This document shows, piece after piece, positions 29,710-40,423 of a stretch of DNA of 64,000 nucleotides. The DNA lies in the NCBI GenBank assembly GCA_033391075.1, contig JAWPMV010000001.1, positions 124,001-188,000 of the forward strand, given 5' to 3'. Origin of the DNA: Bacteroidia bacterium. Its GTDB lineage: Bacteria > Bacteroidota > Bacteroidia > J057. Every line of letters starts with the position of its first letter. The first letter of the stretch is position 1. The translations under genes and the position numbers were made by a program. The notes under the pieces are model-generated. The model did no database searches and was not told where the DNA came from. It worked only from the letters and a program-made list of their open reading frames with translations.

Positions 29710-30483
29710 TCAATTAATTTTTACATAATAATAGACAGAAACATTTTTAGGTCGGGTTTCGCGGGAATCTAAATGGGCAGAACTAGGATTTACTCCATGT
29801 GTACTATGCTTACCAGGATTGGAATTTGCAGCAAAATCTGCAAATCTTAATTTTCCTATTTGAGAATCTGCTTTTTTATCTGATCTGCCCATTCCTATTG
29901 CATGCGTATGATTTTGTAAAGCATCGTTTTGAAATACACCTGCTGCTGATCTTCCTCTATTTAATTGTTTTTCGTTTAGGGCCCCTGCACCTCGATTTTC
30001 GGGAAACATTTGATTTACTCCGCGGATAAAAACCCCTCTTAAATCTGGAATCGTAAGCAGGCCTGATTCAGCATATTTGGACCCTTCTACCTTTCGTCCG
30101 TCACAAGGTGCCCAAATACTCTTTTTTGCATCAAATATTATGGGAAGACCATTGACCTCACTAAAAGTAGCATAATCAATAGTAGAAGAAATGATGCTGC
30201 CAATAGGAACTGTGCCTTTGATGGGGCGTAGTATCGAAGTGCTGCCATCCTGCTGATAAGATTTCGCTTCAATATTCCTTTCGACATTATTTTCGATTGT
30301 TTTCTCAAGATTAGTTACTTCTTGTTGACTTGCTGATGGAGAAACGTATTCTTTTATAAGAATTGTTCCCATTGAAGAAAATACACCTATCAGCGCTAAA
30401 GCAATGGCTTGCCAGGCACGTATCTTCTCAACTTTTACATTTGTTGGATCAGCTATTCTTTGTTTTTTTCGGAAGAGACTCAT
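29710..30483 (-). CDS. Membrane-anchored phage-tail-collar-like protein
   Basis: This 257-residue protein begins with a short basic cytoplasmic segment, one membrane helix (about residues 27-47) and a predicted periplasmic remainder. Residues 85-257 resemble the tail-collar/tail-fibre domain: GTVPIGSIISS, WAPCDGRKV, PDLRGVFIRGVN, NHTHAIG and the family ending ETRPKNVSVYYYVKI. A short coiled coil (EVTNLEKTIENNVERN) links helix and domain and may trimerise it. No phage genes surround it. It is the last gene of a three-gene operon after a 737-residue secreted protein (6-base gap) and a membrane protease, so it probably works with them in the envelope. Confidence 0.85.
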   Translation of the reverse strand: MSLFRKKQRIADPTNVKVEKIRAWQAIALALIGVFSSMGTILIKEYVSPSASQQEVTNLEKTIENNVERNIEAKSYQQDGSTSILRPIKGTVPIGSIISSTIDYATFSEVNGLPIIFDAKKSIWAPCDGRKVEGSKYAESGLLTIPDLRGVFIRGVNQMFPENRGAGALNEKQLNRGRSAAGVFQNDALQNHTHAIGMGRSDKKADSQIGKLRFADFAANSNPGKHSTHGVNPSSAHLDSRETRPKNVSVYYYVKIN

Positions 30484-30489
30484 GGATGG

Positions 30490-32703
30490 TTAATCTTTAA
30501 TTTTTCTGCTTTCTTTAGTCCTGATATTTAGTAAAGGAATATCAACTGCTAATGAAAGACTTAACCTCAGGCTTGGAGTAACATTAAGTATATTTTCATT
30601 TGCCCCTACTGATTTTAAGAAAGCTGTACGTTGAATTCCCAGATTGGTAGAAATAGGACTATTTGCCCAACCCCAGGATATAAAGACTCCGGGAGAGAAG
30701 ATTTCTCTTAGGAATATCTTTGAAAGGACAGTTTCATTGTCAACTAAACGGAGCTCCGTAATTGCTCCCAAATCTATTAGAGAAAAGAATAGACCCAAAC
30801 TATGATGCTTTTTGCTAATTTTCCCAAAGCTCCAGGAAATACCTAGCGGAGCTGTTATTCCTAAAACAGAATCCACATTTGCTACTCCATTTATTGGGAA
30901 CTCAATACCTGCGTAAGGCCCTACATAAGCATTAATAGAAACATTCGTAAAGGATTTTCTTTTGATCATGGAAGAACCAGGAGGAAGAGCATAAGTCTCT
31001 AATACAGTATTAAATTCTTCAGGTTTCTGTATTTGAAGAATTGCTGCGATGAAGGAACTGTATTTTTTAAATAATTTGAGTTGTCTATTAACTCTCTCTA
31101 ATTTTTTCTCCTCCTCTTTGTTGCCATTAGCGTACTTTTTTATGGCCTTTTGTAAGACAAGTTCTTGATAAAGAATGGATACGTTAAAAAGGGCCTTCGG
31201 ATACTGTTTATCAATGACATTGCTTAAAAGGCGGGTAAACTGATCTATTACCCCAAAAACACTTGCTAACTCACCCTCATTTCCTTGAATATTCAGTTTG
31301 TTTACTATATAATTTGCTTTTGCAAATATGACATTTGCAGCCATTATATAAGCTGAGATCTCATTTGCTGGTAATTTTTTAGCGCCTGATTCACGGCTTT
31401 TTTTGAGCAATGCAGATATTTTTCTTGTATTAAAAATTATTTCTTGGAAAGGGGCTTTTAGTTCAAAATAATTTTCGGCAAAAAGATTAAGTTTATCGGC
31501 TAGGGATGTGCTATCTTCGAATTGAATTTGATCTATTTTGGCCTGTTGTATCAAAAGGCCTAAATATATTTTGAATATATCTGGATTAGTAAGAACCAAA
31601 TTCGTGATCGAATCCTGTACCCAATATCCGTGTTTCTTGATTAACTCAGTCTTAGGTTCCCTTATTGATTCAGAGATTAATCTGACTGTAGCTAATCCTC
31701 CAGCGACATCTTTCGGGAATGGTTTTAAATATTCTTTGGTCAGACTTTGAATGATTTCTCCCGGATGTTGTTCATTTTTGATTCCAATGGCTATATCCGC
31801 AGCAAAAATAACAGCAGCCTTATGACTTGTATCCGAAAAAAGCCGGGAATTATCTTTAATGATTAGCTCTTTAAAGTTCTCGGGTAATGAATTTAGATCG
31901 GATTGGAATTGTCCTTTAAGCATAGGAATATGTCGATGGAAGAAAAAAATATCATCTCCGATCATTTCCAGGCCTTTGTGTGTGGCGGGTAAAAGGCTCC
32001 TGAATTCTGGATTATTTTTACTTGATATCGCCCGTTTAAAATTATCGAAATATCGAATGGCTAATTCTTCCTTGCTTCGATTAATGAGGAAAGTAACCAG
32101 GCTGTCAATCAATTGAGTTGTATTCAGGCCTCCTACACTTCCTTCAGAAATAGAAAGAAAATTATTTTGAATTTCCCCTATCCTTACGCATGCCTCCTTT
32201 GGGAAATTAATTCCTTTCAGCATTGAATTTTTACTCAATTCAGTGGAATCCTTTATTTTATACTTCGTTAAAAATGCTTTGACTTTGCAAGGCATATCTT
32301 TTTGGACGTGGAGCGCAATAGCATCATAGACGATAGATGAATTTTGTTCGACTTCACTAGAAGCAGCTTCAGGAGTACTTTCTGCGACAATTTGAATACT
32401 GAGTACATTTTTTGTTGGCTTACAAGTGATTTTTATCTCGAGTCCAAACTTACGAGCCTCTATAAAAGACCCACTTAAAACAATCGTATCCCCTGCCTCA
32501 TATATTTTCGATTCACCCTTAGAAAAAGAAAACTCTTTTTTTGCACTAAATCCGATTAAGCTTATAATATCTCCTTTCTCTGCTTTAAGAGGTGTCTTGG
32601 GGGATGTATTTACATTCCATTCATGAACCTTTTGTGCAAAAGAAGTAGTAGGTCCCAATAGGGAAAAAAGGAATAATAGGCTAACTGTTAGATATCTTTT
32701 CAT
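30490..32703 (-). CDS. Secreted 737-residue protein of unknown family
   Basis: I do not recognise this protein. It has a signal peptide (residues 5-23, ending SFAQ). Residues 25-110 are strand-rich. A long largely helical middle follows from about 120 to 585, with basic stretches. From about 600 to the end the sequence alternates hydrophobic and polar residues in the manner of outer-membrane barrel strands, e.g. VSINAYVGPYAGIEFP and LRLSLSLAVDIPLL. It could be an outer-membrane-linked protein with a helical periplasmic domain. It is 2 bases after the protease gene and 6 bases before the tail-collar gene, so the three are probably one functional unit. Confidence 0.8.
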   Translation of the reverse strand: MKRYLTVSLLFLFSLLGPTTSFAQKVHEWNVNTSPKTPLKAEKGDIISLIGFSAKKEFSFSKGESKIYEAGDTIVLSGSFIEARKFGLEIKITCKPTKNVLSIQIVAESTPEAASSEVEQNSSIVYDAIALHVQKDMPCKVKAFLTKYKIKDSTELSKNSMLKGINFPKEACVRIGEIQNNFLSISEGSVGGLNTTQLIDSLVTFLINRSKEELAIRYFDNFKRAISSKNNPEFRSLLPATHKGLEMIGDDIFFFHRHIPMLKGQFQSDLNSLPENFKELIIKDNSRLFSDTSHKAAVIFAADIAIGIKNEQHPGEIIQSLTKEYLKPFPKDVAGGLATVRLISESIREPKTELIKKHGYWVQDSITNLVLTNPDIFKIYLGLLIQQAKIDQIQFEDSTSLADKLNLFAENYFELKAPFQEIIFNTRKISALLKKSRESGAKKLPANEISAYIMAANVIFAKANYIVNKLNIQGNEGELASVFGVIDQFTRLLSNVIDKQYPKALFNVSILYQELVLQKAIKKYANGNKEEEKKLERVNRQLKLFKKYSSFIAAILQIQKPEEFNTVLETYALPPGSSMIKRKSFTNVSINAYVGPYAGIEFPINGVANVDSVLGITAPLGISWSFGKISKKHHSLGLFFSLIDLGAITELRLVDNETVLSKIFLREIFSPGVFISWGWANSPISTNLGIQRTAFLKSVGANENILNVTPSLRLSLSLAVDIPLLNIRTKESRKIKD

Positions 32704-32705
32704 AA

Positions 32706-35009
32706 CTATGAATTGTTTTCTTCAATAATTGCGAGATTTAAATCCCTGAGTATTCTATGCATGGGTAAGACAAAACTGATACTGCTGCCATCCGCTTCAT
32801 TCAGGCACCCTACAATTATTCCCAGCGTTTTTTCCAGCTTGTCTGGACCTACGAAACAATTGACCAGAGAGCCAGAATCTCCTGACTGTGTCAGGGGCCC
32901 ATCATCGGAACCCAAGCTTATTAAATTGTACAGGGTATAAGCTTTTTTTGAATATTTGTGGCTAAATGGATAATCAACATCAATATTTTGAATATAAGCG
33001 TCTTTGAAGTAGTCTTTACGCTTATAAATCCTTACAGGAGTTTGGTTTAATTGATCGTTGATATCGGGCACATGTACTTCTTGTATGGTCCTGAATAAAT
33101 GCTCGGTCTTTTTAGTAATTTCTATGATACCTGCATCCATAGTATTTGACCAAATCACTTTCTTTATCTTACCTAAACTATGATCCTGTTCTCCATTAAA
33201 AACCAGCGAGGCTCCGGTTTTACTCAAAACATGCCCACAAGAGAGGATGCATTTATTCGGTGAGTCAAGATTCAACAATTTGCCTGCTATTGTTCCTGTG
33301 ATTGTCCTTCCTAATTGTGTTTGTTGAACTTCGTCGATATGGTTGCGCCCTTGAAATTCTGCATATTCCCGTTCCTTTTTAATCACTTCAACTTTTTGAT
33401 TGGATTTTTTCCTTTTAAATTCATCTGGAATTTCCTTCAATTCGAAGCCTTTGAAATGGGAGACTTCGATTACGTACTTTATGGCTTTGTTCTCCTTTTT
33501 TATAAGAACTTTGTTTACGGCTATTACTCCCTCCAATGCCAGCCATTTATCGCGGTTTTTCGCCAGAACCAAATCAACCGGATTTAGGCTTAAGACTCTT
33601 TTGCCTTGATTTTTATTTTTTACCGTCTTTGCTTCTGCTATCCTTTCTGTAGCTTTTTTCTCCTTTTCCTCTGGTTTTTTCCCCGCTCCTCTTAATGCAA
33701 CAAGTTTTGTCAGTAAATCGAACCAAAAGGGAGCCCCAAGACAAAGAGCAAGAGCTGTGATGACAAAGCCCCAAAAGGGCGTTTTGGCAGGATTGAGTTG
33801 AGCTAGGATGTGCCGTAGTTTTCCCCCAAACCCAGTGGAGCTTTCCCCTTTCAGTTCAAACTTTTCTGACGAAATCTTTTGAAGCGCATCTATCCTGACG
33901 TAAGAACTATTTGCAAGCGTATTGATGCGTATCATAGCTCTTTGGTGATCCTGATTTACGCTTCTTTTAAGCGCTAGCAATTCCTGAATCTCTTCTATCT
34001 CTAAGCCTTCCAGATGCAGTTCATTATCCAGGCTATCAGTAAGTTTTTGTGCTTTCATGGCCTTTTTGACCTGTGTATTTAGCTTTTCCCACAGTTCATC
34101 TTTTTGCTTAAAACTTGTGCTTTTAGTTTCCAGGGGGAATTCATGCCCCAATCCTAACAGAATATCTGTGTTTTCTACTTCCTTGCTTATTTCATTTATG
34201 GCTCTGTATAATTGATCTTCTACATATTGACTATCCAAACGACTGATCATCTCGCTCATTTTGGAATCCTTATCTGCCGCTGCAGTTGCAAGTTCAACTA
34301 TTTGTTCGCGGGCAGTATGGTCCTTGGAAAGTACTTTGACAATTTTAAAACTATCTACATTCAGGATGGCGGCAATTAATATACCCACCCAAAAAATGAG
34401 CATTCTCATTTTTCGCTTATACCAACCATTTACCCGATCCATCATTTCTTCATACCATAGCTCAAGCTTTTGGATAAATAGACCCATATCGTCATCTGCA
34501 TCCTCCAGCAAGGAACAAACTTGCTGACAAGTATTAGGATCAAAATGAAGCGCATTATTTTGAACACTAAATTTTATCTTTCCCCAGTCGTGTATGCCTC
34601 TACCTTTTTCACGCAGCATATGGATCAAGGTAGCGCTGAAGGTTTGGGAGGATATATAACTGGGTTTACTTTTCTTGAACAGAAAAATATGGTTAAAGAA
34701 ATTTACTTTGGTCCCCTGGGAGAGGTAGCGGATTGATGCCTGATTATAAAATTCTCGTGCCTTGCTTTCATGAAATCCCTTAGGGGACAATAGGAAGAAA
34801 TGTCGAAGTTTGCGCACAAATCCCTCTGGTATGTTTGAAGTTTCCTGATCTTTAAGATCGGTCAACATATTCGTAATGCCCTGTTTTAATATTCTGGCAC
34901 GAAATCCCATCCAGGTGGAAAGCATTTCTACAATTAAGGACATGAAAATGCTGTAGATGAGGTAGATGAATACCAGACCTAAGGCTAATTCTAGAATGTT
35001 TGTGTTCAT
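32706..35009 (-). CDS. Inner-membrane protein with C-terminal trypsin-fold protease domain
   Basis: This 767-residue protein has three predicted membrane helices (about residues 5-25, 202-220 and 412-430). Positively charged segments follow helix 1, precede helix 2 and follow helix 3, so residues 26-200 and 432-767 should face the cytoplasm and 222-410 the periplasm. The periplasmic part is helical and charged. The C-terminal domain has the elements of a chymotrypsin-like protease: CGHV with His593, DAGII with Asp625, and SGDSGSLV with Ser712. The triad order and spacing fit a compact trypsin-like peptidase. It is first in an operon with the 737-residue and tail-collar genes. A cytoplasmic trypsin-fold protease controlled by a periplasmic sensor is unusual. 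Confidence 0.78.
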   Translation of the reverse strand: MNTNILELALGLVFIYLIYSIFMSLIVEMLSTWMGFRARILKQGITNMLTDLKDQETSNIPEGFVRKLRHFFLLSPKGFHESKAREFYNQASIRYLSQGTKVNFFNHIFLFKKSKPSYISSQTFSATLIHMLREKGRGIHDWGKIKFSVQNNALHFDPNTCQQVCSLLEDADDDMGLFIQKLELWYEEMMDRVNGWYKRKMRMLIFWVGILIAAILNVDSFKIVKVLSKDHTAREQIVELATAAADKDSKMSEMISRLDSQYVEDQLYRAINEISKEVENTDILLGLGHEFPLETKSTSFKQKDELWEKLNTQVKKAMKAQKLTDSLDNELHLEGLEIEEIQELLALKRSVNQDHQRAMIRINTLANSSYVRIDALQKISSEKFELKGESSTGFGGKLRHILAQLNPAKTPFWGFVITALALCLGAPFWFDLLTKLVALRGAGKKPEEKEKKATERIAEAKTVKNKNQGKRVLSLNPVDLVLAKNRDKWLALEGVIAVNKVLIKKENKAIKYVIEVSHFKGFELKEIPDEFKRKKSNQKVEVIKKEREYAEFQGRNHIDEVQQTQLGRTITGTIAGKLLNLDSPNKCILSCGHVLSKTGASLVFNGEQDHSLGKIKKVIWSNTMDAGIIEITKKTEHLFRTIQEVHVPDINDQLNQTPVRIYKRKDYFKDAYIQNIDVDYPFSHKYSKKAYTLYNLISLGSDDGPLTQSGDSGSLVNCFVGPDKLEKTLGIIVGCLNEADGSSISFVLPMHRILRDLNLAIIEENNS

Positions 35010-35230: not shown

Positions 35231-38200
35231 CTAGAGAATAGGTATCCGTAGTTCCACCTGAGTTCCCCTGGCTTCATTTTCCTGAGTATATAAATCAATG
35301 ATTTTCAGGCTGGAGGCTTTGCCTGTTTTTTCTGTAAGTAAGTCTAATCGTTTTTGAGTGATTTCCAGGGCTTTGGAGGTATGATTTTTATTCTTTCCCG
35401 CAGACATTTTCCTACCTACTCCATTATCACTTATTGTACAAACCAGGCTGTCTGATTCCTGATAAAACACGATCAAAATTTCGCCTTTTTCTTTTTTCAA
35501 TGCCAAGCCATGAATTATAGCATTTTCGACAAAAGCCTGAAGGATCATGGTAGGAACGAGGGTTTCATCCCAATCCAATCCTTCTTCTATTTCAAATCGA
35601 TAGGTAAATGCTCCTTCAAATCTAATAGCCTCTATAGCCATATATTCTTCCAGCAATTTCTTTTCCTCTCTTAAGCTGATATATTGATTTTTTGCCAGTT
35701 CGAGCACCTTCCTGCTTAGGGCACTAACTTTCATCAGGAGTTTATCAGCACTTTTTACATTTTTGTCCCATATATAGCTACGAATAGAGTTCAGGCTATT
35801 GAAGATAAAGTGTGGATTCATCTGGACCCGTAAAATAGTGGTTTCCAATTCTGCGAGTTTTTGCTGCTTACGGATATGGGCAATTCGATTTCTGTAAAGT
35901 GCATAGAGCCCCGCCAATGCAAAGACTAAGAGGATAAAATAATAGAGGCTTGTTTCGGTGAAATAAGGCCTGAGACGTAGGCCCATACGCAGGGGTTCAT
36001 TTGACCATTTACCTTCTGAATTGCTGGCATATAGTTCTAAGGTGTAGTTTCCTGGATCAAGATCAAAATATCGCACAAAAGGATCATCGCCTTGGTTTAA
36101 TATCTGCTTGGATTCATCTCTGAGTACATAATAAAATTGACAAGCCTTCGGATTTCCATACTCCATCGCTGAGAAATAAAGGTTTATGCTGCGTTTATCT
36201 GGGGGAAGAACCAATCGTTTAATTTCTCTTCCTTCATATTGAGTGCTCTCATAAAACAGCCCTTCCCTTACCAGATCTCCATTGATTTCAATTTTGGTGA
36301 TGGTAGGCCGGGCTAAAACAGAGTGTTCATTGATTTCACGGGGATCAAAAAGACTATATCCATTGGTTCCTCCAAAAAGGAGTTTTTGATCTTTTGTTTT
36401 ACTGTAAGCATAAAAGTTGAACTCTGTTTCCTGTAAACCATCACTTTTATCAAATATTCGGAAATGATTAAAAGGCTCCTCTTGAGTCTGATTTGGAAGT
36501 ATGTTGGGATTGTAGATGAGAAGACCATTGTTCGTACTGATCCACATTCGGTTATTACTGTCAAACTGCATCCCATTGACTGTTAAAAATCTCTGGTTGA
36601 AAAAATCATCCTTTTTCAAATCGAACTCATTCCCCTGTTTTTCAATCCAATAGAGCCCTTGCGAACTGCCTAGCCAAATACGTTTTTTGTCAGGACTTTC
36701 GGCCATACAGTAAACGAGGGGACCAAATGGGAGAAATGCTTTGAGATGCAGGTTTTCGTTGTTTTTAGTATAGATTTCAATTCCTGATCGATATTTTGAG
36801 GTATAAAGATTCGCGTCCTGATCTTCATAAATCACGGTGAAATCACCAGATTTCCCCTTATCTAAGTCTGCTTTTTCTAATCTGTATGATTCCTCTTTTA
36901 ATTCGAATATTCCATCTCCGAAAGATGAAACGAGAATCCTACCGGACTTAAGTTCTTTTATGTAGGTAGCTACAATTTTGTGTTGATTGTATGCATTGGA
37001 TCTTGGTACAGCCTGGAAATTTTTTTGACTTGGCCTTAAAACAAAAAGGCCTAAATTGCTGCAAACCCACATTCTGGATTTACTATCCTGAAAGATATAA
37101 TAGAGTTCTTTTTTATCCAGGATTTTATCATTTTGAAATTTCGTCCAGGCGGGTCTTACTATTTTTCCATGTTGATCAGTAATAATCAGGGAAGTGTTTG
37201 TAATGGACCAGATATTCCCCTCTGGTCCTTCGCTGAGAGACTTAACGTTTTTTTGTGAGTTGTCAAGGCTTTTTTGTAAGAAACTAGGGAATCGTTTTTT
37301 TTCTAAATTACAATAGAAAATTCCTTCAGAATTTGTTGCGATCCATAAAGTATTGTCTGGGTCCAGATACATTCTCCTAATAGAACTATTGAAAGGCATC
37401 ACTAGACCATTCTGAATAGAATAGATGGTTTTGGTATATGCTTTAGATTTCAGGTTAAATAAAAAAAGGCCTTGTTGGGCAGTTCCTATCAGCAAATGAT
37501 CTCTATCATAAGGTATAATGCCCCGAATAGCCTTGATAGTATCTGCTTGAAAATCAGTAAAGCATTCGAATTCATCTCTATCTTTAGTAGTAAGGACCAA
37601 TCCCTGATCTGTGCCAACCCACAAGTTCCCATTATCTCGGTGATGAAATGCAAATGCATTGTGTGCGGGATGTTTTTTTATCAATTTTGCAGAATAATCT
37701 CCTCGAGGATTCATTTTGTATTCACGAATTTCCCATCCTCCTTTTCGGGGTAAGTATAAATGATATACTTCTAAATCCCGTGAGAATTTTATATGTATAC
37801 CATCTAAATCGAAATTTGGTATTTGATCTATATATATATAAGCCGAATCTGGTTTTCGAGAGTTTATAGCAACTAAATCAAACCTGCTAATTGAACTGTC
37901 TGCTGGAATTAAAGCCCATAAAGAACTTCTCACTGGATCGAAATGCACAATATGCACATCGTTTATTTCCTTCCCTTTTCTATCTCTTACAGCAATTCTA
38001 TTAAACTGTTTTGAATCATGAGAATAATAGTGAATCTTTTGGGAGGTGCTAAACCAAATATTTCCCTCATTATCTTCAAAAAAACCACTTTGCACTACAG
38101 GATCAAAAAGCTGTCTATTGTCTGTACTATCTGGTAAATACTGCATGACTTCCTTACCATCATATCGATTTAAGCCATTGATAGAACTTACCCAGAGAAA

Positions 38201-38368
38201 ATGATGGGAATCTTTTCGGATGACATGTGTATAGGTATTGGAAGTTAATCCTTCTTGGGTCGAAAGCTGATGTAAATACAGGATTTCCGCTTGGCTGTAT
38301 AAGTTCTGCCAGGGAAATAAAAACCAACTCCCAAAGCATATGCTTAAAAATAAACAGGGCAATCGCAT
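35231..38368 (-). CDS. Propeller-type two-component sensor kinase (Reg_prop, Y_Y_Y, LytS-type)
   Basis: This 1045-residue protein has a signal-anchor helix, then two-component-regulator propeller repeats over about residues 30-690 (units ending LWxxTxxGL, such as FLWVSSINGLNRYD), a Y_Y_Y beta-sandwich at about 725-790 and a membrane helix at about 800-825. The cytoplasmic part is of the LytS/His_kinase type: phospho-acceptor His853 in MNPHFIFNSLNS, and an N-box with Asn948. There is no fused receiver or DNA-binding domain, so it needs a partner, most likely the LytTR regulator at 40722. The sensed ligand is unknown. A hairpin directly before its ATG (38370-38410) may control expression. Confidence 0.92.
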   Translation of the reverse strand: MRLPCLFLSICFGSWFLFPWQNLYSQAEILYLHQLSTQEGLTSNTYTHVIRKDSHHFLWVSSINGLNRYDGKEVMQYLPDSTDNRQLFDPVVQSGFFEDNEGNIWFSTSQKIHYYSHDSKQFNRIAVRDRKGKEINDVHIVHFDPVRSSLWALIPADSSISRFDLVAINSRKPDSAYIYIDQIPNFDLDGIHIKFSRDLEVYHLYLPRKGGWEIREYKMNPRGDYSAKLIKKHPAHNAFAFHHRDNGNLWVGTDQGLVLTTKDRDEFECFTDFQADTIKAIRGIIPYDRDHLLIGTAQQGLFLFNLKSKAYTKTIYSIQNGLVMPFNSSIRRMYLDPDNTLWIATNSEGIFYCNLEKKRFPSFLQKSLDNSQKNVKSLSEGPEGNIWSITNTSLIITDQHGKIVRPAWTKFQNDKILDKKELYYIFQDSKSRMWVCSNLGLFVLRPSQKNFQAVPRSNAYNQHKIVATYIKELKSGRILVSSFGDGIFELKEESYRLEKADLDKGKSGDFTVIYEDQDANLYTSKYRSGIEIYTKNNENLHLKAFLPFGPLVYCMAESPDKKRIWLGSSQGLYWIEKQGNEFDLKKDDFFNQRFLTVNGMQFDSNNRMWISTNNGLLIYNPNILPNQTQEEPFNHFRIFDKSDGLQETEFNFYAYSKTKDQKLLFGGTNGYSLFDPREINEHSVLARPTITKIEINGDLVREGLFYESTQYEGREIKRLVLPPDKRSINLYFSAMEYGNPKACQFYYVLRDESKQILNQGDDPFVRYFDLDPGNYTLELYASNSEGKWSNEPLRMGLRLRPYFTETSLYYFILLVFALAGLYALYRNRIAHIRKQQKLAELETTILRVQMNPHFIFNSLNSIRSYIWDKNVKSADKLLMKVSALSRKVLELAKNQYISLREEKKLLEEYMAIEAIRFEGAFTYRFEIEEGLDWDETLVPTMILQAFVENAIIHGLALKKEKGEILIVFYQESDSLVCTISDNGVGRKMSAGKNKNHTSKALEITQKRLDLLTEKTGKASSLKIIDLYTQENEARGTQVELRIPIL

Positions 38369-38439: not shown

Positions 38440-40014
38440 TTAGCTTAGTCGCCCTTCTTCTACCTCATTTTGCCTCATACCCAAACCTTCTAAAAAAGGA
38501 ATCGAAGGAGCATAGAAATATTCACCACCTTTTAGTTTAATGATTCCTTCAAAACTATAAGGAACTTCCTTTACCTCTTTTGTATTCCAGTCTAGAATCC
38601 ATTTATATGGATACAATTCTCCTTCTTCAAAAGGACGGCCTATTATGGGATCATAGCCAGTTTTTTCTTGTTCAAAATCTGGATCATTAGACCACTTTAT
38701 TTTCATCTCTTTAAACTGGGTGGAAACATTTGCTTGATATCCCATGAATAAAAGTCCTACCTTCTCCTCTCCTTTATGATTAATTTCTTTATAAGGTATC
38801 CCTCGGCGAGCTATCCGCATATTGAATTTTTTCCCCTCTTTATATTCGGTTCCATTTTGAGTTATCTGTGCTTTGCTACGTGGATTGGTTTTTCTAATAT
38901 GAGAGAAATAAGGACAACGGGAATCCCCATCAAATCCATCTCTATCCTCGACAGGTTTATATTTATTGAAGTTCTTGATTTTTAAAATGGATTCAATATG
39001 TTGATTTTGATGATCCATAATTGGATGATCATATAATTCAAGAGGAGTTCCATCTCTGAATCTGCCGAAGATCTGAGCCTCAACGAATGCTTTCTTTTCC
39101 TCAAATCCTTTCTGATACTTCTTAAGTCCAAATATCTTGTAAGTAAGATCTTCTACCATCCATTCAAACCGGGCAACATCTTGCTCCAATTTTCTAAATA
39201 CCATATAGCTGCCTAAATGATCATCTAAAACAATCTCTCGGCTCTTTTCTAGAAGTTCCTTTCCATTTTTTTCCCAAAAGGGAATTTTGCTGAGACCATC
39301 CCGAAATCCAAAAGGTTCCCGAGCGTCCCTCCTATTTCCATTGTGGTAAATCATCCTACCTCTTTCTGCAAATAAGAATTTGACAGAACATTTCCGGCCC
39401 CAATAATTTGTAATTTTCATAGCTTCTTCCTCCAATTTGCTAGAGTCATCACCCGCTAGCTGGATCAACATGTCAACCTTTTTTTCTCTTCTCCAGGCGT
39501 ACTTTAACCAGGGGTTTTTACTTTTGGAGCCTGGAATATGGTCATTGACAGCAGTTTTATTGCCGCTACTTGACATCCCTTTCAGGAAGGTTTTATCATC
39601 TGGAAACTTGTCAATTAGACGATTATTCTTCGTTTTTTTGAATCCCAAACCTGATAAATATAGAAAGTAGACATTTGGCTTTGATTTTAAAAATTTATCA
39701 ATATGCTCCAGGTCAAAAACCTTCTTTTTTCTTTCTTTTCCATAATCCAGTCTCTCACTTAAAATTTGTTTGGCTGAAGTTATTTTTTGTGAAAATTCGG
39801 ATATTGTATTCTGGATATTGGATTTTTCATCTTTACTTAAATTATCACCAAAATGGAAAAAGAGGCAAATAACAAATTCTCTCTTATGAGATTCAAAGAT
39901 ATTTCCTTGTACCTGGTTTAGGATATCCAAAGTATCCAAGCCTTCCAAGTAAGGTTTTTCAATAGGTCTGACGTTTCGATTCAAACCTGATTCTTGAGCT
40001 TTTTCGTAGGCCAT
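38440..40014 (-). CDS. DyP-type heme peroxidase, long form
   Basis: The 524-residue protein (ATG at 40014; an upstream TTG frame would overlap the preceding gene) has the DyP landmarks. These are GFRDG at 236-240 with catalytic Asp239, the GSYMVFRKLEQD region, the proximal heme ligand His372 in CPYFSHIRKTNPR, the RIARRGIPY segment, and GLLFMGYQANVSTQF. It therefore binds heme and uses hydrogen peroxide to oxidise dyes, phenols, metals or other substrates. It is longer than the 300-residue encapsulin-cargo forms and has no signal peptide, so it is cytoplasmic or exported by other means. It follows a small unknown acidic protein gene after a few bases. Confidence 0.92.
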   Translation of the reverse strand: MAYEKAQESGLNRNVRPIEKPYLEGLDTLDILNQVQGNIFESHKREFVICLFFHFGDNLSKDEKSNIQNTISEFSQKITSAKQILSERLDYGKERKKKVFDLEHIDKFLKSKPNVYFLYLSGLGFKKTKNNRLIDKFPDDKTFLKGMSSSGNKTAVNDHIPGSKSKNPWLKYAWRREKKVDMLIQLAGDDSSKLEEEAMKITNYWGRKCSVKFLFAERGRMIYHNGNRRDAREPFGFRDGLSKIPFWEKNGKELLEKSREIVLDDHLGSYMVFRKLEQDVARFEWMVEDLTYKIFGLKKYQKGFEEKKAFVEAQIFGRFRDGTPLELYDHPIMDHQNQHIESILKIKNFNKYKPVEDRDGFDGDSRCPYFSHIRKTNPRSKAQITQNGTEYKEGKKFNMRIARRGIPYKEINHKGEEKVGLLFMGYQANVSTQFKEMKIKWSNDPDFEQEKTGYDPIIGRPFEEGELYPYKWILDWNTKEVKEVPYSFEGIIKLKGGEYFYAPSIPFLEGLGMRQNEVEEGRLS

Positions 40015-40021
40015 AATTAAT

Positions 40022-40423
40022 TTATTCTTCGTCTCCTTCGTCTTCTTCAACTAATTCTAATTCAAATTTTGTTTCGGGTCTTTGGAAAGGAGTACATAGA
40101 GCAGCCAATAAAACAACTCTTCCGTCCTCTCCATCAAGAATATCAGTCGGATTTCCAGCATCATCATCATCTTCTACGGCAGCGAATATGTACGAAGGAC
40201 CTTTAAACACATGTCCATGTCCATTGATATCCAATTCGCAGGCTTTGATCATACCACCAATAGTAGCAACTGTTTGAAAGTTATCTCCACTTGTGAAAAC
40301 TTTCCCTTCCAATACTTCCTCGACATTTGGCTTATGAAAATACCTAGCCAAATGAGCTTTAATAGAATTCGTGTATTTAATCGTTCCGTGTTTTCCTTTT
40401 TTTACGATTTTAATTGTAGCCAT
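40022..40423 (-). CDS. Small acidic-tailed protein linked to DyP peroxidase
   Basis: I do not recognise this 133-residue protein. Its first 30 residues are basic, with MATIKIVKKGKHG at the start. The middle looks strand-rich (VFTSGDNFQTVATIGGM, GHGHVFKGPSYIFAAVED), and the last 15 residues are almost all Asp and Glu. No signal peptide or membrane helix is seen. Its stop is 7 bases before the DyP ATG, so the two are co-transcribed. The beta-rich core and acidic tail could make it a scaffold or partner of the peroxidase. That is inference from position only. Confidence 0.7.
   Translation of the reverse strand: MATIKIVKKGKHGTIKYTNSIKAHLARYFHKPNVEEVLEGKVFTSGDNFQTVATIGGMIKACELDINGHGHVFKGPSYIFAAVEDDDDAGNPTDILDGEDGRVVLLAALCTPFQRPETKFELELVEEDEGDEE

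What the first reader, a model, noticed from the sequence alone, without database searches (positions are those of the whole stretch)
29710..35009. Three-gene operon: cytoplasm-facing trypsin-fold membrane protease, 737-residue secreted protein, tail-collar-like periplasmic protein
Gaps of 2 and 6 bases join these genes. The protease triad (His593, Asp625, Ser712) follows three helices whose flanking charges place it in the cytoplasm, while the tail-collar domain and the 737-residue protein are outside the inner membrane. An envelope sensor that releases an internal protease is a possible reading, for phage or contact sensing. I know of no described system with this composition.
Basis: partly seen in the sequence, partly recalled or inferred. 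Interest (0 to 1): 0.78.

Follow-up and report, generated by a model that had tools for sequence, protein, structure and literature searches.

The report
Membrane protein with swappable hydrolase partners
A bacterial membrane protein with a built-in protease belongs to a scattered and apparently undescribed family whose membrane part stays the same while the attached or neighbouring enzyme changes between proteases, lipid-cutting and cell-wall-cutting enzymes, which looks like a modular weapon or self-destruct device of the cell envelope.

Summary
The three genes and the protease triad are real; the three-gene unit is not. Gene 3 (collar-like, C) had no homologue at 80 related loci. Genes 1 (A) and 2 (B) belong to something larger. 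Residues 1-440 of A are a membrane "chassis" with no significant match in the libraries tried, found in 23 of 296 genomes of the window's phylum and 8 of 249 of another. Many relatives are fused to, or next to, a hydrolase, mostly signal-less: subtilase, trypsin, GH25, GH46, M15, amidase, alpha/beta hydrolase, patatin. Enzyme class needs 11 changes on a 37-row chassis tree (minimum 5). Many separate enzymes carry an SH3-like domain; the chassis just before them then ends in glycine (28 of 29, against 3 of 129 background tight junctions), suggesting C-tail docking. In the window the trypsin is fused instead; eight such fusions form one clade with an invariant triad. B, probably an outer-membrane barrel with a helical domain, accompanies protease versions (23 of 27), not SH3 non-protease versions (0 of 10). 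Best reading: a modular envelope-hydrolase system. Shown: composition, swapping, pairing. Inferred: docking, topology, trigger. Untested: phage sensing, killing, export.

The parts
32706..35009 (-). gene A, 767 aa: membrane chassis fused to a trypsin-like peptidase
33690..35009 (-). A residues 1-440: chassis domain, 3 hydrophobic helices, WYKR and LGAPFWFDLL motifs; relatives stand alone or are fused to hydrolases
33711..33737 (-). A residues 425-433 GAPFWFDLL, the most conserved motif of the chassis
32709..33332 (-). A residues 560-767: trypsin-like domain; homologous to trypsins that elsewhere are separate SH3-linked proteins
33231..33233 (-). codon of His593 (catalytic His)
33135..33137 (-). 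codon of Asp625 (catalytic Asp)
32874..32876 (-). codon of Ser712 (catalytic Ser, GDSG)
30490..32703 (-). gene B, 737 aa: exported protein, conserved downstream of protease-type A
31036..32121 (-). B residues 195-556: helical domain
   Evidence: model of modest confidence, mean pLDDT 67.5
30514..30948 (-). B residues 586-730: probable outer-membrane barrel (OmpW/NspA/OmpA-like arrangement, Z about 5)
29710..30483 (-). gene C, 257 aa: one hydrophobic helix (by eye) plus collar/tail-fibre-like C-terminal domain; a neighbour, not a conserved part

Best explanation
A and B are the protease version of a modular envelope-hydrolase system. The chassis (A residues 1-440) sits in the inner membrane and holds one exchangeable hydrolase at its C-terminal end: in many members through an SH3-like domain of a separate, signal-less enzyme that recognises the chassis C-terminal tail ending in glycine; in the window by direct fusion of a trypsin. 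B is an outer-membrane-barrel partner used by the protease versions, probably meeting the chassis or the protease in the periplasm. On an envelope signal the hydrolase is switched on or let loose on envelope material (proteins, lipids, peptidoglycan), damaging the cell itself (abortive response) or a contacting cell. Shown: composition, repeated exchange of enzyme class, B-protease pairing, tail-glycine pairing, triad. Inferred: docking, C-terminus in the cytoplasm, position of B, trigger, self or other as the target.
For: Of 59 candidate partner genes I scanned 41; up to 32 match hydrolase families: S8 15, GH46 5, GH25 3, DUF900 3, trypsin 2, one each of patatin, M15, GDSL, Amidase_2. Of 41 distal control genes 54 families matched, 25 were shown and none of these is one of the nine, though 3 genes match alpha/beta-hydrolase-fold families. 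The 33 SH3-linked proteins fall in six clusters, which I named from the counts, the alignment and motifs read by eye: all hydrolases. Class changes 11 against a minimum of 5, with starred sister pairs of different class such as L100 (S8)/L108 (S1) and L101 (S8)/L086 (GH25). Fused and SH3-linked trypsins are homologous: L063 against L080 6e-24, window against L093 2e-6. Terminal Gly 28 of 29 at chassis-to-SH3 junctions, 0 of 9 at other tight chassis junctions (4 of these 9 are the fused trypsins), 3 of 129 background, 0 of 12 junctions before B. B with 23 of 27 protease loci and 0 of 10 SH3 non-protease loci, p 2.9e-6. Outside this set: a chassis fused to a lipase-like (GHSLGG) domain (L169), next to a patatin-like gene (L171), next to GH19-like genes (these four by eye), and next to annotated amidases on two plasmids. 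Sporadic: none of 59 relatives has it, 12 of them of the same family.
Against: No functional data. Helix 2 and 3 charges are weak, so the side of the protease is unsure. Wall hydrolases in the cytoplasm need a way out that is not shown. No clear defence-island signal: 98 flanking genes gave 40 PADLOC families, single members in the 25 shown, no baseline. Not universal: 44 of 72 complete unfused chassis have no SH3 partner as next gene (43 after the L103 correction), and at 10 loci a RidA-like gene (by eye) follows in fixed synteny, which looks like housekeeping. The 18 partner candidates left out of the scan were mostly not hydrolases by eye, so the share among all 59 is lower than 32 of 41. 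6 of 12 genomes with B lacked A in the single-sequence search, 5 of 12 with the profile. The terminal Gly was noticed in the data it was counted on; AGG is common at these junctions too (20 of 29), so a translation signal is a partial rival. The unnamed L035 chassis ends in EAVG before a subtilase, against a strict tail code.
Confidence: 0.5

Rival explanations
1. Export or lysis cassette: A is a holin-like gate that lets signal-less hydrolases reach the periplasm, B opens the way at the outer membrane; used to lyse the cell or release material.
For: Partners include GH25, GH24, amidase, M15, CHAP and GH19-like enzymes, several of them endolysin types; their substrates are outside the cytoplasm; three helices with N-out as in class I holins (recalled). 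Where no full chassis is next to B, three of its partners start with a signal-peptide-like stretch (L151 metalloprotease-like, L152 trypsin-like, L155 caspase-like; all read by eye).
Against: A is far larger than a holin and has a large conserved soluble part; one chassis protein has no match in 50,697 phage records; a protease fused to A (window) or a lipase (L169) could not leave.
Confidence: 0.25
2. Envelope quality control: a DegS- or HtrA-like stress protease system that cleaves damaged or signalling proteins without killing.
For: Trypsin domain resembles DegP/DegS/NAL1 in weak structural matches; B is a probable outer-membrane partner; some lineages keep the chassis in fixed synteny.
Against: Does not explain exchange with GH25, GH46, M15, patatin and alpha/beta hydrolases; sporadic presence.
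Confidence: 0.15
3. The first reader's phage or contact sensor in which the collar protein C senses and A responds.
For: C follows B by 6 bases; C has tail-collar-like C-terminal sequence.
Against: C homologue in 0 of 80 loci and not beside A in the sampled genomes; no PADLOC match for A, B, C.
Confidence: 0.06
4. The terminal glycine of the chassis is not a docking signal but the by-product of a ribosome-binding AGG for the next gene.
For: AGG in 20 of 29 chassis-to-SH3 junctions; L100 keeps GAGG in another frame and lacks Gly.
Against: Background tight junctions AGG 14 of 129, junctions before B 0 of 12. In the five gap -4 cases the GG directly precedes the predicted start codon, too close for ribosome binding, yet Gly is kept. 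Eight chassis in that list share the peptide EAVG with varying Ala codons (nine with L103).
Confidence: 0.2

Closest known systems
Conflict systems of Kaur et al. [quoted passage not shown] section 32 read and found passages
   Same: membrane-fused trypsins, mixture of peptidases and peptidoglycan-targeting effectors, exchangeable effector position
   Different: no NTPase or NucA found in A, B or C by Pfam; the tether is an unnamed chassis and an SH3-like domain; a probable outer-membrane partner; EAD and Trypco not tested
IetAS anti-phage system and PADLOC 'subtilase' (IetAS recalled; models matched)
   Same: subtilase partners of relatives match PADLOC subtilase (14 of 41, best 7.5e-22) and IetS models (up to 9 of 41 for one model, best 1.4e-11)
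   Different: may reflect only the common S8 domain; no IetA gene was looked for; the window has a trypsin
Polymorphic toxin systems (paper PMC3482391 seen only in a search listing)
   Same: constant part with exchangeable toxic enzymes
   Different: no immunity gene was looked for systematically; no known secretion trailer; most enzymes here have no signal peptide
Phage holin-endolysin lysis cassettes (recalled)
   Same: membrane protein next to signal-less wall hydrolases
   Different: no match in phage records; proteases and lipases as alternatives; fusions
HtrA/DegS envelope proteases and rice NAL1 (matches)
   Same: trypsin-like fold; one homologue matches Nal1_C at 6.3e-4
   Different: no PDZ match in Pfam; different membrane part; exchangeable with unrelated enzymes
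Bacterial gasdermin-protease operons (recalled; review PMC10989679 seen in a listing only)
   Same: a protease gene next to a protein it might act on
   Different: B has a signal-peptide-like start and a barrel-like end; no gasdermin match in Pfam at E 0.1

Membership tests
Trypsin-like (S1/chymotrypsin) peptidases, C-terminal domain of A | His-Asp-Ser triad in order with GDSG | tested here: met
   H593, D625, S712; invariant in 8 of 8
Trypsin-like (S1/chymotrypsin) peptidases, C-terminal domain of A | double beta-barrel fold or curated profile match | tested here: inconclusive
   window: no Pfam trypsin match; 4 of 8 proteins match Trypsin_2, best 0.0056; structural Z up to about 6 with DegP, NAL1, S. 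griseus protease
Phage tail collar family (gene C) | curated profile match | tested here: inconclusive
   Pfam Collar 13.1 bits, cut-off 24; PHROG collar/fibre families 1.8e-11
Holin-endolysin lysis cassette | present in phage genomes | tested here: not met
   no match of one chassis protein (L119) in 50,697 phage records at E 0.01
Holin-endolysin lysis cassette | membrane protein next to a signal-less wall hydrolase | tested here: met
   for a subset of relatives; not for the window, whose hydrolase is a protease
Holin-endolysin lysis cassette | membrane protein forms holes | not testable with these tools
   needs expression
NTP-dependent conflict systems (Kaur et al. 2020) | NTPase core component | tested here: not met
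   no ATPase or GTPase domain in A, B or C by Pfam
NTP-dependent conflict systems (Kaur et al. 2020) | EAD or Trypco domains | not tested
   no models of these searched by name
Known anti-phage systems in PADLOC-DB 2.0.0 | profile match of window components | tested here: not met
   A, B, C 0 families at E up to 1; partners of relatives do match subtilase and IetS models
Outer-membrane beta-barrel proteins (gene B C-terminus) | signal peptide and C-terminal barrel | tested here: inconclusive
   signal-like start in 24 of 25 by a hydropathy proxy; strands at 586-730; Z about 5 to OmpW, NspA, OmpA; no barrel family in Pfam

The most novel reading that the evidence does not exclude
A new class of envelope machine, spread over Bacteroidota, Pseudomonadota and probably cyanobacteria: an inner-membrane chassis whose short C-terminal tail works as a loading code that selects which hydrolase (protease, lipase or wall hydrolase) is held ready at the membrane, with a dedicated outer-membrane partner B for the protease versions, and with fusion as the covalent alternative seen in the window.
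Probability: 0.35. Interest if true: 0.85.

Novelty: new variant of a known kind. Interest (0 to 1): 0.68.

Why it matters
Two protein families without a curated name in the libraries tried (chassis A and partner B) tie together dozens of loci that now read as unrelated hypothetical proteins and hydrolases. If the pairing holds, it gives a directly testable rule (chassis tail and SH3-like domain) for which enzyme is loaded, and a new candidate for self-destruction or contact killing in environmental bacteria.

Tried and rejected
Profile libraries for A, B, C: nothing above cut-offs; NCBIfam on 56 chassis proteins: three weak matches in single members, best 0.0042. PDB by sequence: nothing for A alone, only weak helical or protease fragments for the alignments. 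First scan of genome contigs with A alone confirmed none of 119 stretches; the alignment worked. Contractile injection: one chassis gene lies near a sheath-like and a DUF4255-like gene (L036, by eye), but neither was found in the 80 loci, so rejected as a rule. Holin reading: no phage match. C as a component: rejected. Distant B at L112, L116, L124: hhalign gave no credible match. Longer middle loop in loci with B (median 162 against 121, p 0.0013): loosely fits A-B contact, but sizes vary widely; not used. Foldseek of both models gave nothing at E 0.001, which is no evidence of a new fold. Defence islands: PADLOC on 98 of 119 listed flanking genes gave 40 families, single members in the 25 shown; no baseline, so left open.

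Dropped rows: 18 of 59 partner candidates were left out of the Pfam scan (RidA-like, short, lipoprotein-like, chassis-like and other genes, mostly not hydrolases by eye). 7 of 20 fetched G regions were not read, one of them (L033) known only through its smaller copy L004; 2 of 7 B regions were not read (L153, L156). Of 12 plasmid hits 6 regions were opened. The tree holds 36 of 80 loci plus the window, those with a classified first partner; L059, L083 and L099, which have two enzymes, were labelled by the first, and fused and SH3-linked trypsins were one class. M15 was counted as non-protease; two loci with B (L113, L120) fall outside both of its classes; L055 and L058 are near copies. ORF pruning hid an SH3-GH46 gene at L103, so the table (27 of 28 against 6 of 44) becomes 28 of 29 against 5 of 43. 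That 28 of 29 and the 28 of 29 are different sets that happen to agree: one search includes L128, whose chassis was set aside as over 560 aa, and not L103.
Full report
What is there. The three ORFs, their strand and their gaps are as described. A (767 aa) has three hydrophobic helices and a C-terminal region with the ordered residues H593, D625, S712. It has no match above cut-off in Pfam, NCBIfam, PHROGs or PADLOC, nor in the PDB by sequence. C shows PHROG tail-collar similarity, below Pfam's cut-off.

A is two parts. In 296 genomes sampled from the window's phylum (own genome included), A matches 21 genomes, nearly always only within the first 450 residues or so; a 15-row profile finds 23. 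The phylum is not named by the tool; named relatives are nearly all Bacteroidota or Chlorobiota. None of 59 relatives, 12 of the same family, has it, so it is sporadic. In the phylum of an Asticcacaulis genome (G350, counted in) 8 of 249 have it, and 12 plasmid records do, none over 80% of the query, two of them cyanobacterial; 11 are annotated hypothetical protein and one has no annotation. The conserved features are W185, WYKR at 196-199 and LGAPFWFDLL at 424-433.

The other part is exchangeable. Of 59 candidate partner genes I scanned 41: S8 15, GH46 5, GH25 3, DUF900 3, trypsin 2, patatin, M15, GDSL and Amidase_2 one each. Ten operon genes scanned singly, two of them (L084, L097) already among the 41, gave patatin (4), CHAP with peptidoglycan binding (2), phage lysozyme, papain, Amidase_2, and one without a match. 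Control: 41 genes more than 5 kb away gave 54 families, 25 shown, none of them one of these nine, though 3 genes match alpha/beta-hydrolase-fold families. Two Asticcacaulis loci carry GH19-like genes, one chassis is fused to a lipase-like domain, and another precedes a patatin-like gene, all by eye. Of six annotated plasmid regions, two show an amidase directly after the chassis, one a cell wall hydrolase before it, one a haloperoxidase before it, and two nothing of the kind directly beside it.

Swapping. On a tree of 37 chassis proteins six enzyme classes need 11 changes; the least possible is 5; shuffles average 20.4. So class is inherited over short distances and exchanged over longer ones. 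Well supported sister pairs differ in class: L100 S8 and L108 S1, L118 S8 and L080 S1, L101 S8 and L086 GH25, L064 S8 and L124 S1. The eight fused trypsins, the window among them, are one side of a branch (100/100), so one fusion suffices in this set. Fused and SH3-linked trypsins are homologous.

Two ways of attachment. 33 proteins in 30 of the 80 loci have an SH3-like domain. Of 41 partners 5 have a signal-like start by a hydropathy proxy, none of them an SH3 enzyme. Where an SH3 enzyme is next, the chassis ends in glycine: 27 of 28 against 6 of 44 other complete unfused chassis; one per 60% cluster 27 of 28 against 3 of 30; corrected for L103, 28 of 29 against 5 of 43. At tight junctions: 28 of 29 (chassis to SH3), 0 of 9 (chassis to other, 4 of them the fused trypsins), 3 of 129 (background), 0 of 12 (before B). 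Tail types follow the partner only in part: EAVG in 8 of 9 chassis whose next enzyme is GH25, GH46 or M15 (the L103 chassis, with GH46, is a further one) and in 0 of 20 whose next enzyme is S8, SH3-trypsin or alpha/beta hydrolase; R-x-G in 13 of these 20. Kinship of the chassis was not taken out of this comparison, and an unnamed locus (L035, S8) breaks it with EAVG. Loci not used in these counts agree on the glycine: of those read, L033, L035, L037, L039 and L047 with an SH3 enzyme downstream (by eye) end in G, eight others (L032, L034, L036, L040, L042, L044, L045, L048) do not. Two plasmid chassis before amidases without an SH3 match share another tail ending GGV plus one residue. An AGG ribosome-site explanation is possible for part and is argued in the rivals. 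In the window the trypsin stands where the tail would be.

B. It is found in 25 of 80 loci by blastp and the same number by profile, on the chassis strand in 25 and within the operon limits in 24. It is present in 23 of 27 loci with a protease partner against 0 of 10 with an SH3 non-protease partner; the two other loci with B (L113, L120) are in neither class. B also occurs without a full chassis beside a trypsin-like, a patatin-like, a caspase-like and a metalloprotease-like gene (by eye; near the last, in G190, the chassis profile finds a short match). The model (mean pLDDT 67.5) has a helical middle and a C-terminal set of strands whose best alignments, weak ones, are with outer-membrane barrels such as OmpW and NspA (Z about 5). 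The window's genome holds a second B elsewhere.

C. No homologue in 80 loci, none in 59 relatives, and in the phylum sample matches in 3 other genomes over the collar part, in G253 on another contig than A. C is a neighbour.

How it most likely works. The enzymes together attack everything an envelope is made of: protein, lipid, peptidoglycan. Their lack of signal peptides and the tail pairing place them first at the cytoplasmic face of the chassis; helix charges agree but only helix 1 is clear. That the enzyme is released or activated by an envelope signal, that B carries the signal or is the substrate in protease versions, and that the result is death of the cell or of a neighbour, is inference. 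Export through A is the main rival. What might have told defence from other roles was uninformative: a flank survey without baseline, and matches of subtilase partners to PADLOC's subtilase (14 of 41) and IetS models that may rest on the common S8 domain.

What is known. Searches of the paper library for combinations of these families and for the motif itself found no description. The nearest idea is System 3 of Kaur et al. 2020 (PMC7159879, section 32 read), which joins membrane trypsins with lysozyme- and papain-like effectors, but with other core parts. The lipocone paper (PMC12419801, passages seen) describes toxins without signal peptide that share another common domain. Only open-licence papers are held, so absence is not proof.

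Verdict. The modular system is the finding.

Noticed in passing
window 38440-40050 (-): DyP-type peroxidase gene two genes before A; a homologue (27% identity, 1e-35) follows a chassis gene by 49 bases at L102, and a haloperoxidase precedes one on an Agrobacterium plasmid. Peroxidases may be further partners.
   Followed up: partly
L150:9665-12502 (own genome, C1 about 1.40 Mb): A second, larger B (945 aa) in the same genome without chassis or protease seen next to it; the upstream neighbour is a 645-aa protein.
   Followed up: partly
L036 (G229): Chassis gene with a papain-like neighbour near contractile-injection genes (sheath-like, DUF4255-like; by eye).
   Followed up: partly
L176 and L178: Chassis proteins next to amidases on a Hymenobacter and a Caballeronia plasmid share another C-terminal tail type ending GGV plus A or I, across two phyla.
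   Followed up: partly
L066:14039-18058, L080:15005-18586, L117: Very large proteins of 1193-1340 aa follow several chassis operons; the L066 one has no Pfam match.
   Followed up: no
L065, L078, L079, L081, L082, L085, L087, L089, L098, L109: At these 10 loci, most of them Chitinophaga, the chassis is followed by a RidA-like gene (by eye) in fixed synteny, with no hydrolase in the operon listing.
   Followed up: no
flanks of loci with B (alignment A7): One flanking gene matches PADLOC candidate PDC-M29A at 3.7e-185; which locus was not traced.
   Followed up: no
one of the distal control genes (alignment A6): One of 41 control genes has a strong Pfam Collar match (1.1e-23), so collar genes are not rare near such loci by chance; which locus was not traced.
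   Followed up: no
window 35231-38368 (-): Sensor protein with Reg_prop, Y_Y_Y and His_kinase matches upstream of A, 221 bases away, on the same strand.
   Followed up: no
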